From: Planctomycetota bacterium
Lineage (GTDB): Bacteria > Planctomycetota > Phycisphaerae > Sedimentisphaerales > Anaerobacaceae
NCBI GenBank assembly: GCA_019456195.1
Contig: VRUK01000003.1
Location: 1-64,000, forward strand
Direction of reading: 5' to 3'
Length of the DNA: 64,000 bases
Position 1 is the first letter of the stretch, and each line of letters opens with the position of its first letter. Positions 1-38,347 of the stretch are shown here, in pieces. Both the position numbers and the translations under genes were made by a program. The notes under the pieces are model-generated. The model saw only the letters and a program-made list of their open reading frames with translations, made no database searches and was not told where the DNA came from.

Positions 1-12
1 CTCTTCCGATCT
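1..12. other. Residual sequencing-adapter sequence
   Basis: The first twelve bases, CTCTTCCGATCT, are identical to the 3' end of the standard Illumina TruSeq-type adapter. The reading frame of the sulfatase fragment that follows makes sense from base 13 onward. This suggests that the window begins at a contig edge and that these bases are not genomic. Confidence 0.8.
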
Positions 13-138
13 GCCGACCGCACAGAGCTGAATGACCTGTCACAAAAATATACACGAACAGTCGAACAGTTAAAAGCGATGTATGAAAAGTGGGCCGCCA
101 GATGTGCCGTTCAACCCTGGCCCGTCAAAAAGAAATGA
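13..138 (+). CDS. Sulfatase, C-terminal fragment
   Basis: Frame 1 is open from base 13 to a TGA at 136-138 and encodes about 41 residues. It begins ADRTELNDLS and ends with WAARCAVQPWP followed by a lysine tail. The DRTELNDL motif followed by a Trp-Ala and Pro-Trp-Pro tail is the usual C-terminus of arylsulfatases of the formylglycine (S1) type. The catalytic part is missing because the contig starts here. The stop lies 17 bases before the next sulfatase start, so three sulfatases stand in tandem and are probably co-transcribed. Confidence 0.75.
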   Translation, partial: ADRTELNDLSQKYTRTVEQLKAMYEKWAARCAVQPWPVKKK

Positions 139-154
139 GAAACGAAAGAGTATT

Positions 155-1717
155 GTGGATACGAATCTAAACAGGCGTGACTTTTTTAAGACAGTAGGTC
201 TGACCGCTGCGGCAATGACGGTACCTGGATGTGTTCGCGCTGCAAGCCGAGTTAACAGCAGGGCTCCCAGGCATCCGAACATTGTCTTTATTATGGCCGA
301 CGATATGGGTTACGGTGATGTAGGTTGTTACAATGCCGAATCAAAGATTCCCACGCCGAATATAGACAGGTTAGCAAAACAGGGCATTCGTTTTACGGAT
401 GCCCATTCGCCGTCGGCGGTTTGCACCCCCACTCGTTACGGTGTATTGACAGGCAGATACTGCTGGAGGACATGGCTCAAAAGCGGTGTCGTGGGCGGTT
501 ATACCAATCCGCTGATAGAACCGAGCCGGACTACGGTTGCTTCATTCCTGCAAAAAAAAGGTTACCAAACGGCCTGTATCGGCAAATGGCATCTGGGAGT
601 AGGCTGGACACGACACAACGGCTATGTGGGTAACGCTGAAGACGGGCGCAAGTATTTTAATGGCTCGTGGCAGGATGGAGACCCTAAGAAGAAAATGAAT
701 GTAGATTTCACAAAGCCCGTTAGCGGCGGTCCGGCGGATTTGGGTTTTGACTACGCATATTTTACCGCTGCCTGTTCGACGATTGACGGCCCGTTTTGCT
801 ATATTGAAAACAAGCGTACAGTCGGGATACCGAACAAGATGATGCCGATAGACAAAAGTGTTCATCCCGACTATCGTCCGCGTCCGGGCTGGGTGGCTGA
901 TGGTTTTGATGTCACCGAGGTTGATACGATATTTACCGGCAAAGCCATCGAGTTTATGGAAGATAATTCTAAAAAACACCCCGTCAGTCCGTTCTTTTTA
1001 TATCTACCACTTTCTTCACCGCATGCTCCATGGCTGCCGCCGGATTTTGTTAAAGGCCACAGCGGGGACGGTGCACGCGGCGATCTGGTTGTATGGACCG
1101 ACTGGTGTGTGGGTCAAATTCTTAATTCGCTCGACCGTCTTGGATTGACGGAAAATACATTGTTAATTGTTACAAGTGACAACGGCCCCCGGCACGGCCG
1201 GGAAGATCATAAATCATCGGGTAAGTTACGTGGATTTAAATCGCATATCTGGGAGGGCGGCCATCGTATTCCTTTCCTTGCCCGCTGGCCTGGAAAGATT
1301 GAACCGGGCGGCACCAGTGATGAGGTTATCTGTTTGACCGACCTGATTGCAACCTGCGCGGCTGTTGTGGGAGCCGAACTGCCTGATGATGCCGGGCCGG
1401 ACAGCTTTAACATCCTTCCTGCTCTTTTAGGTGTCGAGCTTGATGAGCCGATTCGCCCTGCTATCGTTCATCATTCTGTTTTTGGGGTATTCTCTATACG
1501 ACAGGGCAAGTGGAAGTTGATACTTGATACGAAAACGTCCGGAGGGTGGGTTCGTCCGAGAGGAAAGAAACCACAGCCTGAAACTCCCGGGCAGCTTTAT
1601 AATATGCAGGATGATCCTTATGAACGAAATGACCTGTGGGATAAATACCCTAATATAGTGGAACGCCTCACGAAACTGCTTGAAAAATATCTAAAACAAG
1701 GCCATAGCAGATATTAG
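155..1717 (+). CDS. Formylglycine-type sulfatase with Tat lipoprotein signal
   Basis: The protein of about 520 residues belongs to the S1 arylsulfatase family, which hydrolyses sulfate esters. The active-site signature is C-T-P-T-R with the Cys near residue 90, to be converted to formylglycine. The metal-binding start MADDMGYGDVG, an SDNGP motif and a GKWHLG motif are all visible. I prefer the GTG at 155 to the ATG at 83: it lies 17 bases after the preceding stop, has GAAAGAG before it, and yields MDTNLNRRDFFKTVGL, matching the next sulfatase. The twin arginine, hydrophobic stretch and V-P-G-C suggest Tat export followed by lipid anchoring. No formylglycine-generating enzyme is visible in the window. 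The substrate cannot be told from sequence. Confidence 0.93.
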   Translation: MDTNLNRRDFFKTVGLTAAAMTVPGCVRAASRVNSRAPRHPNIVFIMADDMGYGDVGCYNAESKIPTPNIDRLAKQGIRFTDAHSPSAVCTPTRYGVLTGRYCWRTWLKSGVVGGYTNPLIEPSRTTVASFLQKKGYQTACIGKWHLGVGWTRHNGYVGNAEDGRKYFNGSWQDGDPKKKMNVDFTKPVSGGPADLGFDYAYFTAACSTIDGPFCYIENKRTVGIPNKMMPIDKSVHPDYRPRPGWVADGFDVTEVDTIFTGKAIEFMEDNSKKHPVSPFFLYLPLSSPHAPWLPPDFVKGHSGDGARGDLVVWTDWCVGQILNSLDRLGLTENTLLIVTSDNGPRHGREDHKSSGKLRGFKSHIWEGGHRIPFLARWPGKIEPGGTSDEVICLTDLIATCAAVVGAELPDDAGPDSFNILPALLGVELDEPIRPAIVHHSVFGVFSIRQGKWKLILDTKTSGGWVRPRGKKPQPETPGQLYNMQDDPYERNDLWDKYPNIVERLTKLLEKYLKQGHSRY

Positions 1718-1751
1718 TATAAAGACAAAATAAGAAATAGGAGGTTTTTCA

Positions 1752-3191
1752 ATGAACAATAATTTGAACAGACGAGATTTCTTAAAGACGGCAGGCCTTA
1801 CAGCAGCAGCGCTTGTGCTGAACGGTTGTGAAAGTTCTTTTAAGCAGGCTTCGAGCACAGACAAACCGAACGTTATTATTATATTCTGTGATGATGTCGG
1901 TTATGCGGATATCGGTGTTTTCGGGGCCAAAGGATATAAAACTCCCCACCTCGACCGGATGGCGGCTGAAGGTGTGAAGTTCACGGATTTCTACGCCGCT
2001 GCGCCGTCGTGTACTCCTTCGCGGGCGGCTTTGATGACCGGCTGTTATCCGCAGAGGGTTAGCCTGCCCAATGTAATCGGCCCGAGCGCGAAAGTTGGTA
2101 TAAGCAGTGAGGAACAGACCATCGCTGAGGTTCTCAAGCCCATCGGTTACGCTACCGCCTGCTACGGTAAATGGCACCTTGGCCATCATACTGAATTCCT
2201 GCCGATGCGACACGGTTTCGACGATTACTTCGGCCTGCCTTACTCGAACGATATGTGGCCGAAACATCCGACAAGCGATAGATACCCAGACCTTCCGCTT
2301 ATAGAAGGCGAAAGAGCCATAGAATATAATCCCGACCAGACGCAGCTTACTACGTGGTACACTGAGCGTTCTGTTCGATTCATTGAGAAGAATAAGGACC
2401 GGCCTTTCTTCCTGTATCTGCCTCATTCAATGGCGCATGTGCCCTTGTTTGTATCAGACAAATTCAAAGGCAAATCCGAACAGGGCCTGTATGGTGACGT
2501 CATGATGGAAATCGACTGGTCGGCGGGACAGATACTCTCAACACTTAAAAGATTAGGCATTGATAAAAAGACTTTGGTGATATTCAGCTCAGATAACGGG
2601 CCGTGGTTAAGCTACGGCGACCATGCCGGTTTGGCCAAACCTCTGCGCGAAGGTAAAGGAACGACGTTCGATGGAGGCCAGAGAGAGTCAACCATTATGC
2701 GCTGGCCGGGCCGGATACCCGCAGGCACTGTCTGTAAGGAGCCGGCTTCGACGATAGACATCCTGCCCACAGTTGCGAAACTAACCGGCGCAGCATTGCC
2801 TGCTCATACTATCGACGGTAGGGATATCTGGTCTTTGATGTCGGGCAGGCCCGGAGCAAAGAGTCCGCACGAAGCATTCTTCTATTATCGCGGCTATGCG
2901 CTCGAAGCGGTCCGCAGCGGAAAATGGAAACTGCACCTGCCCCATGCTTACCGTACATTGGCCGGACGCGAGGGCGGTACAGGCGGCCAACCGACTAAGT
3001 ATGAACAGGGCAAAATCGATCAGTCGTTATTTGACCTTGAAAAAGATATCGGCGAGCAACACAATGTCTCTGCCCGCTACCCGGATGTAGTCGAGAGGCT
3101 GTTGGGTCTTGCTGAGCAAATGCGCCGCGAGCTGGGCGATTCGTCTAAAAAAATGAAAGGCAGCGGCAGAAGAGAGCCCGGACGAATATAA
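1752..3191 (+). CDS. Formylglycine-type sulfatase with Tat lipoprotein signal
   Basis: This S1-type sulfatase of 479 residues is probably translated from the same transcript as the one before it. A strong AGGAGG lies about seven bases before the ATG. The N-terminus MNNNLNRRDFLKTAGL carries a twin-arginine motif, followed by a hydrophobic segment and L-N-G-C, which looks like a lipobox with Cys 26. The formylglycine motif is C-T-P-S-R with Cys 87. Further motifs are FCDDVGYADIG (metal ligands), YGKWHLGHH and SSDNGPW. It differs from the upstream paralogue throughout, so it probably acts on another sulfated sugar or position. The C-terminus is rich in Lys and Arg. Confidence 0.94.
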   Translation: MNNNLNRRDFLKTAGLTAAALVLNGCESSFKQASSTDKPNVIIIFCDDVGYADIGVFGAKGYKTPHLDRMAAEGVKFTDFYAAAPSCTPSRAALMTGCYPQRVSLPNVIGPSAKVGISSEEQTIAEVLKPIGYATACYGKWHLGHHTEFLPMRHGFDDYFGLPYSNDMWPKHPTSDRYPDLPLIEGERAIEYNPDQTQLTTWYTERSVRFIEKNKDRPFFLYLPHSMAHVPLFVSDKFKGKSEQGLYGDVMMEIDWSAGQILSTLKRLGIDKKTLVIFSSDNGPWLSYGDHAGLAKPLREGKGTTFDGGQRESTIMRWPGRIPAGTVCKEPASTIDILPTVAKLTGAALPAHTIDGRDIWSLMSGRPGAKSPHEAFFYYRGYALEAVRSGKWKLHLPHAYRTLAGREGGTGGQPTKYEQGKIDQSLFDLEKDIGEQHNVSARYPDVVERLLGLAEQMRRELGDSSKKMKGSGRREPGRI

Positions 3192-3279: not shown

Positions 3280-3372
3280 GACAGGCAGGTTTGAAATTCT
3301 CATTATAATTTTAGCCGTTATCATATTCGCCTTCTTATTTTCATATCTTGAACCTGCCTTGTGAAGAAAAGT
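3280..3372 (+). repeat. Hairpin element, copy 1
   Basis: This is the first of two direct repeats in the 640-base gene-free stretch before the pseudopilin-Hint gene. AGGCAGGTT at 3283-3291 pairs perfectly with AACCTGCCT at 3351-3359. The interior is AT-rich and almost identical to copy 2, and similarity continues a few bases beyond the distal stem arm. In one frame both copies read as a hydrophobic peptide (RFEIL..ILAVIIFAFLF), but copy 1 lacks a start codon in that frame. Confidence 0.7.
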
Positions 3373-3451: not shown

Positions 3452-3545
3452 AACAGGCAGGTTTGAAATACTTTTTATAATTTTAGCCGTCATTATATTC
3501 GCCTTCTTATTTCATACCTCTCGAATCTGCCTTTCAGAGAAACTC
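3452..3545 (+). repeat. Hairpin element, copy 2
   Basis: This is the second direct repeat, with a period of about 172 bases. The left arm ACAGGCAGGTTTGA at 3454-3467 pairs, with one G-U and one mismatch, with TCGAATCTGCCT at 3521-3532. The stem is kept by compensating or wobble changes relative to copy 1, which argues for a folded element. A related element (26194-26278 on the minus strand) lies at the same distance, just under 300 bases, from the start of the second pseudopilin-Hint gene. A shadow ORF from 3348 runs through it and I do not consider it a gene. Confidence 0.65.
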
Positions 3546-3629: not shown

Positions 3630-3832
3630 TGAACCGGCCGTTTTTGAGCGAAAAAACAGAACAATGGAGATTCGCAAAAAACGGTGTTTAGTGCTGTGCA
3701 TTACATTTTGACAGGAACTGTCATGATACGTGCCCGGTAATTAGTTGTACTTATTGTTATTAAAGAGATTATCAAAATGTGCTTAAGAATGGTCGGTCGC
3801 GCGAATCTCCGAAAAATTAAAGGAGAAAAAAA
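3630..3832 (+). promoter_or_regulatory. Conserved leader of pseudopilin-Hint gene 1
   Basis: This upstream region is homologous to the one before the second pseudopilin-Hint gene. Shared blocks in order are GGCCGTTTTTGAG (3636-3648), GGAGATTCGC (3666-3675), GTGTTTAGTG, GCATT, TTAAGAATGGTC, GCGAATCTCC (3801-3810) and the ribosome-binding site AAGGAGAA. GGAGATTCGC and GCGAATCTCC are exact reverse complements about 125 bases apart, so they can form a long-range stem that ends just before the ribosome-binding site. A palindrome TGACAGGAACTGTCA at 3709-3723 exists only in this copy. The function is unknown; a folded 5' UTR or a duplicated promoter region is inferred. Confidence 0.6.
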
Positions 3833-5104
3833 ATGAAACGCAAAGGTTTTACATTAGTTGAGCTTCTGGTCGTAATTGCGATCATAGCTCTGTTGATGGG
3901 CATCTTAATGCCCGCACTGTCGAGGGTCAGACAGATTGCCTTCCGCATGGTCTGCGGGACGAACCTGTCCGGCATCGGCAAGGCAATGCTTATCTACAGC
4001 AATGATTACGACGATGAGTTTCCGCGTGCCGGCGGCAGAAACAGCACATGGGGCAGTACATTAGGTGGTGCTAATGGCTGGATGGCCAATAACCGCTTCG
4101 CCGCTTACGGCTTAGGCGCCGACGGCAGCGGTGGTAAGGCCACCATCACATCCAGTTTCTATCTTCTGGTCAAGTACGCCGAGGTAACGCCCAAGTCGTT
4201 CATCTGCAAAGGTGATTCCGGGACAACGGAATTCAAGCAGAGCGATTACCCCGCTGCGGCCGGCTTTGATCTTATCGACCTCTGGGACTTCGGCCCCGAG
4301 TCGATAAACCACTGCAGCTACTCCTACCATATGCCTTACGGCCTGTACTCTCTGACTACATCGAGCGAGCCCGGTATGGCAGTAGCGGCGGACCGGAACC
4401 CCTGGATGACCTCCCCGGCAGCAGAAGCCAAAGATGCGGCATTGTTAAGCTCATACGATCCTACCGGAGGTAGAGAAATGGTCAATATCGGAAACGCCAT
4501 TGCTCACCAGGAAGATGGACAGAACGTATTGTTTATGGACAGCCATGTGACCTTCGAAAAACAACCATTCTGCGCCATCAACGACGACAACATTTACACC
4601 TACTGGGACGGCGGAGATATCCGGCGTGGCGGTTACCCAGTTGCCAACGTTAGTGAGCCGGGTGACAGACTGGACTCGTTTCTCGTAAACGATGGTGAAA
4701 AGGGCAGGTGTTTCCCTGCTGATACACCTGTATGGGTAAACGGCGCACTCGTGCAAATCTCGAAAGTTATCGTAGGCCGGACAGTCGGCTGTCTCGCAAC
4801 AGCCAGACAAATCGAAAAACTTGAAGAGCACCAGGGTTCATTCGAATGCCGCAATATAACGCTCGAAAACGGAAATCGCATCAGCGTCGTTGATACACAC
4901 CGCTTCATGCTCGATTCCGGAAAATGGGTTGCTGCCCCGAATTTGCAAAGTGGTATGAAGCTCAAATCGTTGAAGGGTTCAATTGCGATTAAGAGCGTCG
5001 TAAAAAGACCATTACCTTTCGTTGGCAAGGTCTATAATCTTAAGGTAGCCGGCTCAGAGCAATATTTTGTAGGCAAAGACGGCGTGATTGTGCGAGATTG
5101 GTAA
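3833..5104 (+). CDS. Prepilin-like protein fused to a C-terminal Hint domain
   Basis: The protein has 423 residues. Residues 1-30 form a type IV prepilin/pseudopilin leader, MKRKG|FTLVELL, with cleavage expected after Gly 5 and Glu at position +5, then a helix ending LMPAL. The middle region resembles planctomycete H-X9-DG pseudopilins (HQEDGQ..FMDSHVTF). Cys 293 (codon at 4709) starts a Hint domain of 131 residues: CFPADTPVWVNG, a core His in SVVDTHRF, and the end YFVGKDGVIVRDW. Known Hint domains use the Cys for N-S acyl shift; an intein would end His-Asn, here replaced by Arg-Asp. Cleavage before Cys 293 could release or transfer the pilin part. The start is set by AAAGGAG. A paralogue lies at 24611-25900. 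Confidence 0.85.
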   Translation: MKRKGFTLVELLVVIAIIALLMGILMPALSRVRQIAFRMVCGTNLSGIGKAMLIYSNDYDDEFPRAGGRNSTWGSTLGGANGWMANNRFAAYGLGADGSGGKATITSSFYLLVKYAEVTPKSFICKGDSGTTEFKQSDYPAAAGFDLIDLWDFGPESINHCSYSYHMPYGLYSLTTSSEPGMAVAADRNPWMTSPAAEAKDAALLSSYDPTGGREMVNIGNAIAHQEDGQNVLFMDSHVTFEKQPFCAINDDNIYTYWDGGDIRRGGYPVANVSEPGDRLDSFLVNDGEKGRCFPADTPVWVNGALVQISKVIVGRTVGCLATARQIEKLEEHQGSFECRNITLENGNRISVVDTHRFMLDSGKWVAAPNLQSGMKLKSLKGSIAIKSVVKRPLPFVGKVYNLKVAGSEQYFVGKDGVIVRDW

Positions 5105-24610: not shown

Positions 24611-25900
24611 TTAGAAATCACGTACGACTACTCCGTCTTTGCCTACATTGTACTGATCTGAGTTGCTGATCTTGAGGTTATAAACATTGCCTACGAAAGG
24701 CATTGCTCTGGTTACAACGCTCTTGATTGCAACTGTGCCGTTTAATGTCTTAAGGCTCATGCTGCTTTCCAGGTTCTGGGCTGCTACCCATTTGCCTGAA
24801 TCAAGCATGAAGCAGTGTGCATCCACGACGCTGATGCTGTTGCCGTTTTCGAGTGTGATGTCGCGGCATACCCAGGAACCCTGATGTACTTCGAGTTTCT
24901 CTAAGCTTGCTGCTGCAAGACAGTTGGCTTTGCCGATTGTCTGGCCTGCGGCTACTTTCGAGATTTTCACCATTGTGCCGTTTACCCATACTGGTGTATC
25001 AGCAAGGAAGCATCCTCTGCCCTTTGGTGGTGGTGCTGCTCCGCCTTCGGCATCGTTTACGAGGAATGAATCCAATCTGTCCGTAGGCTCACTTACCCCA
25101 GGCATTGGTAATCCACCTCGTCGGATGTCTCCGCCGTCCCAGTAGGTGTAAATGTTGTCGTCGTTGATGGCACAGAACGGCTGTTTTTCGAAGCTAACAT
25201 GGCTGTCCATAAACAGTACGTTTTGTCCTTCTTCCTGGTGAGAAATAGAGTTTCCAATATTGACCATTTCTCTGCCACCGAGAGGATCGTATGAGCTCAA
25301 CAGGGCCGGATCTTTGGCTTCGGCCGCCGGAGAGGTGATCCATGGGTTACGATCCGCTGCCACTGCCATACCGGGCTCGCTCGATGTAGTCAGAGAGTAA
25401 AGACCGTAAGGCATATGGTAGGAATAGCTGCAGTGCTCATTTCCTAAGGGGCCGAAGTCCCAGAGGTCGATAAGATCTCTGTCACCTGCTGCGTAGTCCG
25501 TGGGCTTGAATTGTGTAGTCCCGGAATCACCCTTGCAGATGAATGACTTGGGCGTTACCTCGGCGTACTTGACCAGAAGATAGAAACTGGACGTGATGGT
25601 GGCGTTTCCACCGCTGCCGTCGGCGCCTAAGCCGTAAGCGGCGAAGCGGTTATCAGCCATCCAGTTAGCTAAGCCAAAACTCCAAACGCTGTTTCTGCCG
25701 CCGGCACGCGGAAACTCATCTTCGTAATCGTTGCTGTAGATGAGCATTGCCTTGCCGATACCGGACAGGTTTGTCCCGCAGACCATACGGAAGGCAATCT
25801 GCCTTACCTTGGCCAGAGCAGGCATCAGGATACCCATCAGCAGCGCGATAATCGCGATGACGACAAGTAACTCAACTAATGTAAAACCTTTTTTCCTCAT
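24611..25900 (-). CDS. Prepilin-like protein fused to a C-terminal Hint domain (paralogue)
   Basis: The protein of 429 residues is a close paralogue of 3833-5104. MRKKG|FTLVELL is the prepilin leader, and the same H-X9-DG-like middle region follows. A Gly/Ala/Pro-rich linker (GGAAPPPKGRG) precedes Cys 297, which opens a 133-residue Hint domain: CFLADTPVWVNG, core His in SVVDAHCF, end YNVGKDGVVVRDF. The terminal His-Asn of inteins is again Arg-Asp, and the Thr of the TxxH motif is Val in both copies. The start at ATG 25900 follows AAGGAGAA and matches paralogue 1; the ATG at 25933 is rejected. The linker is the main difference between the two proteins. Confidence 0.85.
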   Translation of the reverse strand: MRKKGFTLVELLVVIAIIALLMGILMPALAKVRQIAFRMVCGTNLSGIGKAMLIYSNDYEDEFPRAGGRNSVWSFGLANWMADNRFAAYGLGADGSGGNATITSSFYLLVKYAEVTPKSFICKGDSGTTQFKPTDYAAGDRDLIDLWDFGPLGNEHCSYSYHMPYGLYSLTTSSEPGMAVAADRNPWITSPAAEAKDPALLSSYDPLGGREMVNIGNSISHQEEGQNVLFMDSHVSFEKQPFCAINDDNIYTYWDGGDIRRGGLPMPGVSEPTDRLDSFLVNDAEGGAAPPPKGRGCFLADTPVWVNGTMVKISKVAAGQTIGKANCLAAASLEKLEVHQGSWVCRDITLENGNSISVVDAHCFMLDSGKWVAAQNLESSMSLKTLNGTVAIKSVVTRAMPFVGNVYNLKISNSDQYNVGKDGVVVRDF

Positions 25901-26067
25901 TTTTGTTCTCCTTTTCCATTTCGAGATTCGCAAAATTAGACCGTTCTTAAATACGCTTCGGTTTACTTTGTAATTTATAAATGCTTACTGCCACATGAAT
26001 GCCGGACACTAAACACTCTTCCGTAGGCGAATCTCCTCGAGTTAATGTTGTTTACTTAAAAACGGCC
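25901..26067 (-). promoter_or_regulatory. Conserved leader of pseudopilin-Hint gene 2
   Basis: Read on the minus strand this region has the same ordered blocks as the leader of gene 1: GGCCGTTTTTAAG (26055-26067), GGAGATTCGC (26027-26036), GTGTTTAGTG, GGCATTCAT, TTAAGAACGGTC, GCGAATCTC (25923-25931) and AAGGAGAA. The two arms GGAGATTCGC and GCGAATCTC are complementary while sequence between them has diverged. This pattern supports a selected pairing or two protein-binding sites. Confidence 0.6.
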
Positions 26068-26193
26068 AGTCCAACCTGGTTAAACCATTTAAAAACAGAG
26101 TTTATACGCTTAAATTTACATACTTCCAGAATAGCTGCTAATTCGAGGTGCCCAGCCAAACCGTAAAACGCCTCTTCAATATGCCTCATCCTG

Positions 26194-26278
26194 ACAGGTT
26201 GGTTTTCCGATATGAAATTTTGAACCAAATATGATGACGGTTTTTATTATGATAACAGTACTTTCCAAACCTACCTGT
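26194..26278 (-). repeat. Hairpin element, copy 3 (divergent)
   Basis: On the minus strand ACAGGTAGGTTT (26278-26267) pairs, with one mismatch, with AAACCAACCTGT (26205-26194). The interior shares CCGTCAT(C/T)ATATT with the two copies before gene 1 but cannot encode the same peptide. Its distance to the start of the Hint gene is just under 300 bases, as at the first locus. Confidence 0.5.
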
Positions 26279-26416
26279 TTCAGATATAATCGTAACACAG
26301 GGCGTCTTCCCTGTCAAATAAATTTCGGCGAATTTTACAGGTTTCTTGATAAAAAATTAAAAATAGTGTAATATCCCTGTTTTTAGCTCGAAATCGTGGA
26401 TGTGGGTACTCAACAA

Positions 26417-29190: not shown

Positions 29191-29203
29191 ATCGATATAT
29201 TTA

Positions 29204-29281
29204 AAGGGGATGGAGTTCCCCGTATAACCGCCCAAAAAGCTGATAACTCCTACTGTGGATCAGACTATGGGAGTTGTTTCT
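29204..29281 (+). ncRNA. Fluoride riboswitch (crcB motif) with terminator platform
   Basis: The conserved aptamer parts are present in order: AGGGGATGGAGTTCCCC (29205-29221), AACCGCC, then AAAGCTGATAACTCCTACTG (29236-29255). This matches the crcB RNA consensus, including the pairing of GGAGTT with AACTCC. Downstream, AACTCC (29245-29250) can instead pair with GGGAGTT (29269-29275), followed by a T-rich GTTTCTT. That is a switchable terminator: fluoride binding would hold AACTCC in the aptamer and allow transcription of crcB. Confidence 0.88.
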
Positions 29282-29353: not shown

Positions 29354-29731
29354 ATGTGGCAGAAGTTTGTATATTTAGGCCTTGCAGGGGCCGCCGGAAC
29401 AATCGCCCGTTATTTGCTGTCAGGAGTAATTCAGAGAAATGTAACGGCCGTATTTCCATTGGGAACGGCAGCCGTTAATATTATTGGCTGTCTGTTGTTC
29501 GGTCTGTTGTGGGCCTTTGTGGAAAACAGACTTTCAATCACCGCCCAGATGCGAATGATAATTTTTGTTGGATTCTTTGGTGCTTTCACCACTTTTTCTT
29601 CTTTTGTTTTTGAGACCGCTCAATTACTCGACGAATCACAGTGGCTCTGGGCGGCAGGTAATATCCTGTTTCAAAATGTAATTGGCATAGCATGTGTTCT
29701 GACGGGTTTGGCCGTTGGGAAATTGATTTGA
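29354..29731 (+). CDS. crcB: Fluoride ion channel CrcB/Fluc
   Basis: The protein of 125 residues has four membrane segments and forms a dimeric fluoride exporter. GGAAGTIARYLLSG-like GAAGTIARYLLS, the NIIGC Asn motif and GFFGAFTTFSSF with the fluoride-lining Phe residues are visible. It lies directly downstream of a fluoride riboswitch, which settles the function. The next gene encodes a DUF190 protein, a common partner. Confidence 0.95.
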   Translation: MWQKFVYLGLAGAAGTIARYLLSGVIQRNVTAVFPLGTAAVNIIGCLLFGLLWAFVENRLSITAQMRMIIFVGFFGAFTTFSSFVFETAQLLDESQWLWAAGNILFQNVIGIACVLTGLAVGKLI

Positions 29732-35271: not shown

Positions 35272-36720
35272 ATGATGGACAAAAGAACCCGAAGAGACTT
35301 TCTTAAAATGACGGGCTTTGCGGCCGCTTCGCTTGGGACAGCTTCACTGCTGCCGAGCTGCGCTTCTGAAAGCCGAACAGCCGGGATAAAAGGAAAACGC
35401 CCTAATATTATTTTTATACTTGCCGACGACCTGGGCTATGGAGACCTCGGCTGCTTTGGGCAAAAGACTATCCAAACGCCGAATATAGACCGGCTGGCCG
35501 CCGAAGGCATGCGCTTCACCGACCACTACGCCGGAAGCACTGTCTGTGCGCCGTCCCGCTGCTGTTTAATGACGGGTCTGCACTCCGGACACGCCCTGGT
35601 TCGCGGTAACGCAAATGTGCCGCTGCGGCCTTCCGATGTTACCGTTGCCGAGTTGCTCAAACAGGCCGGCTACACCACCGGTATCATCGGCAAATGGGGT
35701 CTGGGTGAAGCTGACAGCACCGGCATCCCAAACAGGCAGGGCTTCGATTACTGGTTCGGATATCTCAATCAGAGACATGCACATAACTACTACCCGAAGT
35801 ACCTCTGGCGCAACGAACAAAAGGTCGAGCTTAACAACGAGGTCAATCACATTATCGCCGGGCGCGACCGAACTCCGGGCGGCGTCGCGACAAAACGCGT
35901 TGACTATTCACACGATTTGTTTGCCGAAGAGGCCCTGCGATTTGTCCAAAAGAACAAGGACAATACTTTCTTCTTATATTTACCCTTTACAATTCCGCAT
36001 GCAAACAACGAGGCCGGAAATAAGGGCATGGAAGTCCCTTCGCATGGGCCGTACACCAACAGAGATTGGTCCGAGCCCCGGAAAGGCCACGCCGCGATGA
36101 TAACGCGAATGGACGGCGATATCGGCAGGCTGATGGCCAAACTTAAGACACTTGGCCTGGATGAAAATACGTTCGTGTTCTTTTCGAGCGACAACGGCCC
36201 GCATAAAGAAGGCGGAGCAGACCCGGTTTTCTTTAAGAGCTCCGGCCCACTGCGAGGCTACAAGCGCGCACTCTATGAAGGCGGAATTCGTGTTCCCACG
36301 ATTGCACGCTGGCCGGGCAAAATAAAAGCCGGCTCGAAGACCGACCATATCTCGGCATTCTGGGATTTCATGCCGACCTGTTGCGACCTGGCTGGCGCAA
36401 AAAGCCCGGATGGCATCGATGGAATCTCTATGCTTCCAACGCTGCTCGGTCAAAGCTCAAAACAGAAAAAGCACGAGTTTCTTTACTGGGAATTTCACGA
36501 GCAGGGCAAAAGGCAGGCTGTTCGCATGGGCGACTGGAAGGGCATTCGCCAGAACGTGGCAAAGAAACCAAACTCACCCGTAGAGCTTTACTATCTGAAA
36601 ACCGATATCGCCGAACAGCACAACGTCGCCAAACGGCATTCGCAAATCGTAGCAAAGATTGAAGATTTAATGAAGTCTGCTCGAACACCGTCGGAGAACT
36701 GGCCCCTGCCCGGACAATAG
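35272..36720 (+). CDS. Formylglycine-type sulfatase with Tat lipoprotein signal
   Basis: The protein has 482 residues. [16 protein letters not shown] carries a twin-arginine motif, followed by a hydrophobic stretch and L-L-P-S-C at 30, resembling a lipobox. The active site is C-A-P-S-R with Cys 92; further motifs are [25 protein letters not shown] and [12 protein letters not shown]. Relatives of this kind are usually called arylsulfatase A-like. GGGAG precedes two adjacent ATG codons, of which the second has better spacing. It is followed by another sulfatase after a gap of about 200 bases, which holds only A-rich sequence. Confidence 0.94.
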
Positions 36721-36928
36721 ACACACAACCCGCAGGTAAAAAAAGGCAAGGAAGAAAAAAGGCAAGAGTACAAAAAAAGATAAATTGACACCAACGCCCA
36801 CAAATTCACATTTGAAAAAATTGAGACTGCGTAGGCAAATTTCTCGATGAATGTTCTTAACTACAGATGGCAAATTGTGTATCCTATGGCTGCAAATGAA
36901 TTTTATATTGTAGTTAAGGATGTTTACA

Positions 36929-38347
36929 GTGAACCGCAGACAATTTCTCAAATCAACAGTCTTTAGTGCGGCGGCGTTGGCAATACCCGGTTGTTCATCA
37001 GAAATTACGAAAGCCGGTAAAGATGGCAAATCGAAGCCGAATTTTCTATTTATCCTCGCCGATGATTATGGCTGGTCTCAATTGGGCTGTTATGGCAGTC
37101 AATACTATGAGACTCCCTATATAGACCGGCTGGCCCGGCAGGGTATGAAATTTACCGATGCCTATGCCGCCTGCCCGGTTTGCTCGCCGACCCGCGCCAG
37201 CATTATGACCGGAAAGTATCCCGCCCGCCTGCACCTGACCGATTTTATAGCAGGCGGCAGCTTCCCCTACGATAAATATAAACAGCCTGCCTGGCAAAAA
37301 TTCCTGCCGCTTGAGGAAATAACTTTTGCCGAGGTCCTCAAAACAGCCGGCTATACAACCGCCAGCTTCGGAAAATGGCACCTGAGCATCGCCAAAAAAC
37401 CACCGCAGTCCCTGCCCTATAATCCCGAAAGGCAGGGCTTCGATGAATCCTTTGTTACTTACAAACCATCTTCGAAACACGACCCTGAAAGTGATGCCCA
37501 CAATGTGGAAATAATAACGGAAAAATCGCTTGAGTTTCTTCAAAACAATAAAGACACCCCCTTTTTCCTGTATGTCACCCACAACACCATACACTCGCCG
37601 ATTCTCGCAAAGAAAAAGCTCCTCGAAAAATATAAAAACAAACCCGGCGCAAATTTACCTCAGAACAACCCAATAGTCGCAGCAATGATTGAGGACCTCG
37701 ATAACAGTGTTGGTAAGTTACTTGCAAAGCTCGATGAACTGAAGATAGCCGACAAAACCATTGTCGTTTTCTTCGGCGATAACGGCGGCCTGGAAAAGGC
37801 GGCAAAGCAGACCCCTCTACGCAGCGGCAAGGCGAATTTGTATGAAGGAGGCATAAGAGAGCCTCTAATCGTGCGCTGGCCCGGGGTAGTACAGCAGGGC
37901 AGCTCTTGCAGTGAACCTGTAACAAGTGTGGATTTCTTCCCGACCTTTCTGGATATCCTCGACCTGAAGAACAAGGCCACAAACACAATCGACGGACTCA
38001 GCCTGCTGCCCCTTCTGCGGCAAACCGGCCCCCTGAACGCCCGCGCGATTTACTGGCACTATCCCCATTATCACTCCAGCAGTATCGGCCCCGGCGGAGC
38101 TGTCCGTATGGGCGATTATAAACTGCTCGAATGGTTCGATGAAACTATCTGCGGCCCTTCCAACAGGTTCGAGCTTTACAATCTAAAACACGATATCGGC
38201 GAGAAAAATAACCTTGCCAAAAAGCTGCCGCGAAAAACCAGACAACTAAAAGAGCTGTTAGCGAACTGGCGACAAAAAGTAGGCGCACAGATTATGACGC
38301 GGAATCCCGGCTACGACCCCCAAAAAGCCAAAAAATCAAAAATTTAA
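36929..38347 (+). CDS. Formylglycine-type sulfatase with Tat lipoprotein signal
   Basis: This S1-type sulfatase has about 472 residues. The active site is C-S-P-T-R with the Cys near residue 85; the metal-binding region is FILADDYGWSQLGCYG, with ASFGKWHLS and FFGDNGGLE further on. An ATG at 36920 is in frame, but the GTG at 36929 is better spaced from AAGG and gives MNRRQFLKSTVF, like the N-termini of the other sulfatases. A-I-P-G-C is a lipobox-like end of the signal. The four sulfatases with intact N-termini share this Tat-lipoprotein layout. The substrate is unknown. Confidence 0.93.
   Translation: MNRRQFLKSTVFSAAALAIPGCSSEITKAGKDGKSKPNFLFILADDYGWSQLGCYGSQYYETPYIDRLARQGMKFTDAYAACPVCSPTRASIMTGKYPARLHLTDFIAGGSFPYDKYKQPAWQKFLPLEEITFAEVLKTAGYTTASFGKWHLSIAKKPPQSLPYNPERQGFDESFVTYKPSSKHDPESDAHNVEIITEKSLEFLQNNKDTPFFLYVTHNTIHSPILAKKKLLEKYKNKPGANLPQNNPIVAAMIEDLDNSVGKLLAKLDELKIADKTIVVFFGDNGGLEKAAKQTPLRSGKANLYEGGIREPLIVRWPGVVQQGSSCSEPVTSVDFFPTFLDILDLKNKATNTIDGLSLLPLLRQTGPLNARAIYWHYPHYHSSSIGPGGAVRMGDYKLLEWFDETICGPSNRFELYNLKHDIGEKNNLAKKLPRKTRQLKELLANWRQKVGAQIMTRNPGYDPQKAKKSKI

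What the first reader, a model, noticed from the sequence alone, without database searches (positions are those of the whole stretch)
3630..3832. Duplicated leader with conserved long-range inverted repeat before both Hint genes
Seven blocks occur in the same order before both Hint genes. Among them GGAGATTCGC and GCGAATCTCC are complementary, about 125 bases (gene 1) and about 95 bases (gene 2) apart, and sit just before the ribosome-binding site, while the sequence between has diverged. This could be a structured regulatory RNA or a pair of binding sites for one regulator.
Basis: seen in the sequence. Interest (0 to 1): 0.62.

Follow-up and report, generated by a model that had tools for sequence, protein, structure and literature searches.

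The report
Two-part structured RNA leading pilin mRNAs
The inverted repeat is one helix of a previously undescribed RNA pseudoknot that sits just before the start codon of one particular pilin gene in a whole order of planctomycete bacteria, inside a mRNA leader whose front part is also used before other secreted-protein genes; this looks like a new RNA-based control of a cell-surface gene.

Summary
A longer complementary pair (A/A', 15-18 bp) crosses them: A-B-A'-B'-SD-ATG, an H-type pseudoknot. A covariance model finds it in 83 of 161 genomes of the order and in no other order sampled, 1-2 copies per genome. Apart from marginal hits it always abuts the start codon of one pseudopilin family, mostly without a Hint domain. 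Both helices covary: 72 and 11 paired compensations on a protein tree, against control means of 14.8 and 1.3. Two hundred bases upstream lies a second element, domain I, starting just after a conserved TTGACA-N17-TAATAT promoter in most leaders. It has a closing helix and conserved AU-rich modules. Gene 1 has two copies, gene 2 one. In related genomes domain I also precedes secreted proteins (beta-helix, GLUG, subtilase, macroglobulin, RCC1). Rfam knows neither part. Most likely this is a bipartite cis-regulatory leader whose pseudoknot, about 10 nt before the Shine-Dalgarno, controls pilin translation; structure and linkage are shown, regulation is inferred. A DNA-operator reading is disfavoured.

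The parts
3281..3361 (+). Domain I, first copy, gene 1 (closing strands GGCAGGTTTGA / TTGAACCTGCC; core TTATAAT, GTTATCATA, TTTCATATC)
   Evidence: 60-nt direct repeat with copy 2; alignment of 86 copies and closing helix
3453..3535 (+). Domain I, second tandem copy, gene 1
3633..3650 (+). Helix A, 5' strand ACCGGCCGTTTTTGAGCG (pseudoknot stem 1)
3666..3675 (+).
3780..3797 (+). Helix A, 3' strand TGCTTAAGAATGGTCGGT
3801..3810 (+).
3819..3825 (+). Shine-Dalgarno AAAGGAG
3833..5104 (+). Gene 1: pseudopilin with C-terminal PT-HINT domain (423 aa)
26289..26317 (-). Promoter before gene 2: TTGACA-17-TACGAT with TG before the -10; conserved at this place in most relatives
26193..26278 (-). Domain I, single copy, gene 2 (ACAGGTAGGTTT ... 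AAACCAACCTGT)
26053..26067 (-). Helix A, 5' strand, gene 2
26027..26036 (-). Helix B, 5' strand GGAGATTCGC, gene 2
25939..25953 (-). Helix A, 3' strand, gene 2
25923..25931 (-). Helix B, 3' strand GCGAATCTC, gene 2
25908..25915 (-). Shine-Dalgarno AAAAGGAG, gene 2
24611..25900 (-). Gene 2: paralogous pseudopilin with Hint-like C-terminus (429 aa, 83% identical to gene 1)

Best explanation
The mRNA of this pseudopilin carries a structured 5' untranslated region (about 380 nt in gene 2) with two separate RNA domains. Domain I lies at the predicted 5' end: about 85 nt closed by a roughly 11-bp helix around three conserved AU-rich modules (UAUYAUAA, GUCAUCAUA, UUUCAUAUC). Domain II is an H-type pseudoknot: stem A (15-18 bp) and stem B (9-10 bp) cross, and stem B ends about 10 nt before the Shine-Dalgarno. 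The pseudoknot, its private link to one pilin family and the two-domain layout are shown by comparison. Inferred: the pseudoknot sets how readily the 30S subunit loads on the pilin start site. The B' strand (GCGAAUCUC) can pair either with B, leaving the Shine-Dalgarno free, or weakly with the Shine-Dalgarno itself, so formation of B:B' would be the ON state, or the folded pseudoknot would be the target of a repressor. Because domain II marks only this gene, 1-2 copies per genome, gene-specific control (autogenous or by a dedicated factor) fits better than a widely used metabolite aptamer. Domain I, shared with other exported proteins, would add a signal common to the secretome.
For: Crossing helices in both leaders; RNAalifold finds helix A unaided. 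Family alignment A4 of 88 matches: 89.8% of cells paired against 26-47% when slid; all 18 A pairs and 6 of 8 core B pairs show two-sided changes; B core 98% paired. Independent set of 17 leaders from other families: 88.6% against 34-41%, B 98-100% paired. Parsimony on a protein tree of 71: 72 (A) and 11 (B) kept double changes, controls 14.8 (max 27.6) and 1.3 (max 5.6). Distribution: 60/89 family, 83/161 order, only this order in class and phylum samples. Position: helix B ends a median of 10 nt before the SD, the RNA abuts the ATG of the same pilin family. Promoter and domain I upstream. B' to SD: at least 4 Watson-Crick pairs in 73 of 103 leaders, 29 expected with shuffled SD letters. No terminator in the window leaders, so translation rather than attenuation.
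Against: No transcript, probing or expression data. The B'-SD pairing is only 4-5 bp and is not supported by covariation: six leaders whose SD drifted from GGAG keep UCUC in B'. The loop between B and A' varies in length (median 78, roughly 18-155 nt) and only part is conserved (GYAYUYAU in 49 of 96, 1.3 expected), so a fixed ligand pocket is not evident there. No promoter was recognised before gene 1.
Confidence: 0.55

Rival explanations
1. Constitutive mRNA stabiliser or translation enhancer: the two folded domains protect the 5' end and keep the start site open for a highly made pilin, without any signal.
For: Domain I lies at the predicted 5' end right after the promoter; stem A is long and stable; no terminator or obvious alternative fold; each leader serves a single gene.
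Against: The sequence of stem B, the AU modules of domain I and a GYAYUYAU motif are conserved beyond what pairing needs, which suggests recognition by something.
Confidence: 0.23
2. A two-domain riboswitch: domain I is the aptamer for a small molecule such as a surface-life second messenger, and the pseudoknot is the pilin's expression platform; other exported genes use domain I with other platforms.
For: Domain I precedes many different exported proteins in related genomes (103-105), has a closing helix with a strongly conserved core (97-99), and is tandem in type-1 leaders, as in some known tandem riboswitches.
Against: No similarity to any Rfam riboswitch, c-di-GMP classes included. Inner helices of domain I could not be shown. 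The AU-rich repeated core could as well be a protein site.
Confidence: 0.18
3. DNA-level operator: the two arms are binding sites for one transcription regulator.
For: Inverted repeat near the gene; the sequence of B is strongly conserved.
Against: G-U pairs are frequent (191 of 1306 paired cells in A) and act as intermediates; the partner strand compensates changes; two crossing helices; fixed spacing to the SD; it lies downstream of the conserved promoter.
Confidence: 0.02
4. Recent duplication only: the leaders resemble each other because the genes were copied, and the complementarity is accidental.
For: Two paralogous genes 20 kb apart; the arm pair alone is not above chance in one sequence.
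Against: Both paralogous leader types occur in several species of the genus, and the structure is kept with compensatory changes across the order.
Confidence: 0.01

Closest known systems
rpsO (ribosomal protein S15) leader pseudoknot of E. coli and mycobacteria
   Same: A pseudoknot in the 5' UTR at the translation start of one gene; in mycobacteria it lies upstream of the start codon and is required for translational autoregulation (PMC8470358).
   Different: Different gene, no sequence similarity known, a much longer loop between the stems, and the Shine-Dalgarno lies outside the pseudoknot; no protein partner known.
c-di-GMP-I / cGAMP (GEMM) and c-di-GMP-II riboswitches
   Same: From general knowledge: structured leaders, sometimes tandem, before pilin and surface-protein genes.
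   Different: No match at any threshold tried; different fold and core; no ligand known here.
preQ1 and other pseudoknot riboswitches acting on the Shine-Dalgarno
   Same: Pseudoknot close to the ribosome-binding site; control at translation would work alike.
   Different: Those aptamers are small and usually involve the SD; here stem A is 15-18 bp, the inserted loop about 78 nt, and the element serves one pilin gene.
Orphan structured RNA motifs from comparative genomics (e.g. PMC2864571; Rhodopirellula-1 listed there for planctomycetes)
   Same: Conserved leader or intergenic RNA without known function.
   Different: Rfam 15 has no match; the Rhodopirellula-1 alignment was not at hand and could not be compared; three later discovery papers mention no planctomycete or pilin motif in their main text.

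Membership tests
Conserved cis-acting structured leader RNA (general kind) | Secondary structure supported by covariation in homologues | tested here: met
Conserved cis-acting structured leader RNA (general kind) | Constant association with one gene family, same strand, between promoter and start codon | tested here: met
   the promoter is predicted, not mapped
Conserved cis-acting structured leader RNA (general kind) | Change of expression that depends on the structure | not testable with these tools
   needs reporters or RNA-seq
c-di-GMP-I, c-di-GMP-II or any other Rfam riboswitch | Match to the family covariance model | tested here: not met
   pseudoknot; domain I
rpsO/S15 translational operator | Lies before the gene for ribosomal protein S15 | tested here: not met
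   downstream gene is a pseudopilin
H-type RNA pseudoknot (structural class) | Two helices in the order a-b-a'-b' | tested here: met
Upstream open reading frame / leader peptide | Conserved short reading frame over the arms | tested here: not met
   ATG at arm B in 9 of 103 leaders only, with products of 4 to 25 residues

The most novel reading that the evidence does not exclude
Planctomycetes of this order run an RNA-based cell-surface regulon: domain I is a new aptamer or protein-binding RNA at the very 5' end of many exported-protein mRNAs, and the pilin adds a private second domain, the pseudoknot, so that one mRNA integrates a shared secretome signal with a pilin-specific signal.
Probability: 0.3. 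Interest if true: 0.87.

Novelty: new variant of a known kind. Interest (0 to 1): 0.72.

Why it matters
It adds two undescribed structured RNA elements in a bacterial order known mostly from metagenomes: a covarying pseudoknot tied to one pilin, and a 5'-terminal element shared with other exported proteins. If regulatory, it is an RNA-level control of pilus and secretome genes in planctomycetes, where surface biology is poorly understood, and an orphan RNA with a clear gene context from which to look for the signal. It is directly testable with short reporter constructs and RNA probing.

Tried and rejected
Third copy in the own genome by blastn: none. Rfam at permissive thresholds: only chance matches. 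uORF at arm B: not conserved. Upstream hairpin just before helix A: shuffle z of -0.4, not supported. Inner hairpin P3 pairing GUGUUUA with UAAGCAUU: clear in the gene-2 subgroup (8-10 bp) but not general. Hairpin around the first AU module of domain I: no better than shuffled flanks. Alternative pairing of A with AAAAACGG just after arm B: seen by eye in gene-1-type leaders but not in gene-2-type ones. RNAalifold gave no fold for my trimmed domain I alignment, so its closing helix was judged by pair counts with slid controls instead. Anti-SD pairing of B': possible, not covarying. Intrinsic terminator: none in the window leaders; a T5 run after B' in 2 of 103.

Full report
CHECK OF THE OBSERVATION. 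Gene 1 has GGAGATTCGC at 3666-3675 and GCGAATCTCC at 3801-3810; gene 2, on the minus strand, has GGAGATTCGC at 26036-26027 and GCGAATCTCG at 25931-25922, so nine pairs there and not ten. On its own this pair is unremarkable: 13% and 33% of dinucleotide-preserving shuffles of the two leaders contain a helix at least as good. ACCGGCCGTTTTTGAGCG (3633-3650) pairs over 18 bases with TGCTTAAGAATGGTCGGT (3780-3797); gene 2 keeps 15 pairs (26067-26053 with 25953-25939). The order is A, B, A', B', Shine-Dalgarno, ATG: an H-type pseudoknot. Both helices together, crossing, occurred in 0 of 1000 shuffles of either leader.

COMPARATIVE TEST. A protein search of the genus gave eleven orthologous or paralogous leaders, falling into a gene-1 type and a gene-2 type. 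RNAalifold recovers helix A without help. A covariance model built from these (helix A plus sequence) finds the leader in 60 of 89 genomes of the family, with E-values down to 1e-20 and better outside the genus. On the 88 aligned matches (A4) 89.8% of the cells are paired; sliding the partner by 1-3 columns gives 26-47%. All 18 pairs of A and 6 of the 8 core pairs of B have changes on both sides; the B core is 98% paired. The alignment was fitted to A, but B entered the model as sequence only. A broader model finds it in other families of the order; seventeen such leaders, counted apart, are 88.6% paired against 34-41% when slid, with B at 98-100%. To count events and not sequences I mapped changes by parsimony on a tree of 71 downstream proteins: 72 paired compensations in A and 11 in B, against means of 14.8 (max 27.6) and 1.3 (max 5.6) when the partners are permuted within the helix. 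G-U pairs make up 191 of the 1306 paired cells of A in A4, as expected for RNA and not for a DNA operator.

DISTRIBUTION AND GENE CONTEXT. With the best model 83 of 161 genomes of the order have it, 1-2 copies each as a rule. Samples of the class (397 genomes) and of the phylum (392) contain no match outside this order (stricter filters were used there, so weak cases may be missed). Named records of genomes with this pilin are MAGs labelled Planctomycetota, Phycisphaerae and Sedimentisphaerales. Wherever the contig reaches far enough, the RNA ends at the start codon of the same pseudopilin family (N_methyl, Pfam PF07963; N-terminus GFTLVELLVVIAIIALLMGILMPAL-RVRQ-A-R--CGTNL). The exceptions are a few marginal hits (E about 1e-3 or worse: L157, L158), consistent with chance, and one decayed copy (L100:402-600). 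The own genome has 66 places matching the query protein at E<=1e-10 and only two with the leader. So the leader belongs to the pilin and not to Hint.

ANATOMY OF THE PSEUDOKNOT. Over 103 leaders the median loop lengths are 18 nt (A to B), 78 nt (B to A') and 2 nt (A' to B'), and B' ends a median of 10 nt before the Shine-Dalgarno, which is AAGGAG in nearly all. The short A'-B' linker and the 18-nt first loop are compatible with the two stems stacked end to end (inference). The long loop holds a motif GYAYUYAU in 49 of 96 leaders against 1.3 expected; in the gene-2 subgroup it pairs with an upstream GUGUUUA, but this inner hairpin is not general. The B arm reads like a Shine-Dalgarno (AAGGAGAUU is the commonest form) and B' like its complement; B' could pair with B or, by 4-5 bases, with the Shine-Dalgarno. 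That offers a switch, but the second pairing shows no covariation: six leaders with a drifted Shine-Dalgarno keep UCUC in B'.

A SECOND DOMAIN UPSTREAM. Reading further upstream showed that the conserved leader is longer. In most leaders a promoter TTGACA-N17-TAATAT, often with TGTG before the -10, lies about 210-260 nt before the pseudoknot (gene 2: 26317-26289). Right after it comes an element of about 85 nt, here called domain I: GGYAGGUUU ... UAUYAUAA ... GUCAUCAUA ... UUUCAUAUC ... AACCYRCC. Its ends pair: 88% of cells against 26-49% when slid, with two-sided changes at 10 of 12 pairs. Gene 2 has one copy (about 26278-26193); gene 1 and other gene-1-type leaders have two in tandem (3281-3361 and 3453-3535), which explains the 92% direct repeat. 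In the own genome a strict pattern for domain I occurs only at these two genes. Elsewhere in the order the pattern also turns up away from the pilin, several times in some genomes. Of the twenty such loci fetched, about fifteen show the same element with a closing helix, mostly just after a promoter-like sequence. Those with a readable gene downstream encode proteins with apparent signal peptides: right-handed beta-helix, GLUG, RCC1 with a lectin-like domain, alpha-2-macroglobulin, subtilase and PKD-type proteins. So domain I is not private to the pilin, while the pseudoknot is. Rfam 15 has no match for either.

MECHANISM. Shown by comparison: a conserved pseudoknot on the transcript, next to the start site of one pilin gene, and a conserved 5' element before it. 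Predicted: the transcription start just before domain I (gene 2; a 5' UTR of about 380 nt). Inferred: control of translation initiation, since the pseudoknot abuts the ribosome-binding site and there is no terminator. The restriction of domain II to a single gene family recalls autogenous or factor-specific operators, such as the S15 pseudoknot of rpsO (PMC8470358), more than a metabolite aptamer. Domain I, shared among exported proteins, is the better candidate for a general signal. A purely stabilising or enhancing role is the main rival and cannot be excluded.

KNOWN OR NEW. Structured leader RNAs are a known kind; this family, its pseudoknot and the two-domain arrangement were not found in Rfam 15 or in the papers that could be searched. 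The held library lacks most subscription journals and preprints, and the Rhodopirellula-1 motif of PMC2864571 could not be compared.

Noticed in passing
L225-L243 (e.g. L230:389, L242:434), genomes G010, G024, G025, G037, G064, G066, G068: Domain I occurs at the 5' end of mRNAs for several unrelated exported proteins; some of these leaders (L232, L235, L242, L243) also share a stretch CCGUCAUAA...UUUAUCAUA... shortly before the ribosome-binding site.
   Followed up: partly
L100:402-600 (G001:C325:5201-5399): A decayed leader copy that keeps helix A and the first B arm but has lost B' and the Shine-Dalgarno, 3.5 kb upstream of an intact leader.
   Followed up: no
window 3833-5104 and 24611-25900; L022, L027, L035, L036: Pseudopilins with a C-terminal PT-HINT domain and nothing behind it; the same Hint domain lies in much larger open frames elsewhere in these genomes. 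Self-cleavage would release the pilin part.
   Followed up: no
window 29197-29259 (+): Fluoride riboswitch (RF01734, 53 bits) upstream of a CrcB-like ORF (29354-29731); already known kind.
   Followed up: partly
window 1-12: The window begins with CTCTTCCGATCT, the end of the Illumina adapter: probably an assembly leftover.
   Followed up: no
window 83-3191 and 35272-38347: Two pairs of sulfatase-like genes with twin-arginine-like N-termini (NRRDFFK, NRRQFLK).
   Followed up: no
L142, L145, L213, L214, L216, L217, L221 (other families): In other families of the order the long pseudoknot loop often holds a hairpin with the conserved sequence CCCUGCGURGGG.
   Followed up: no
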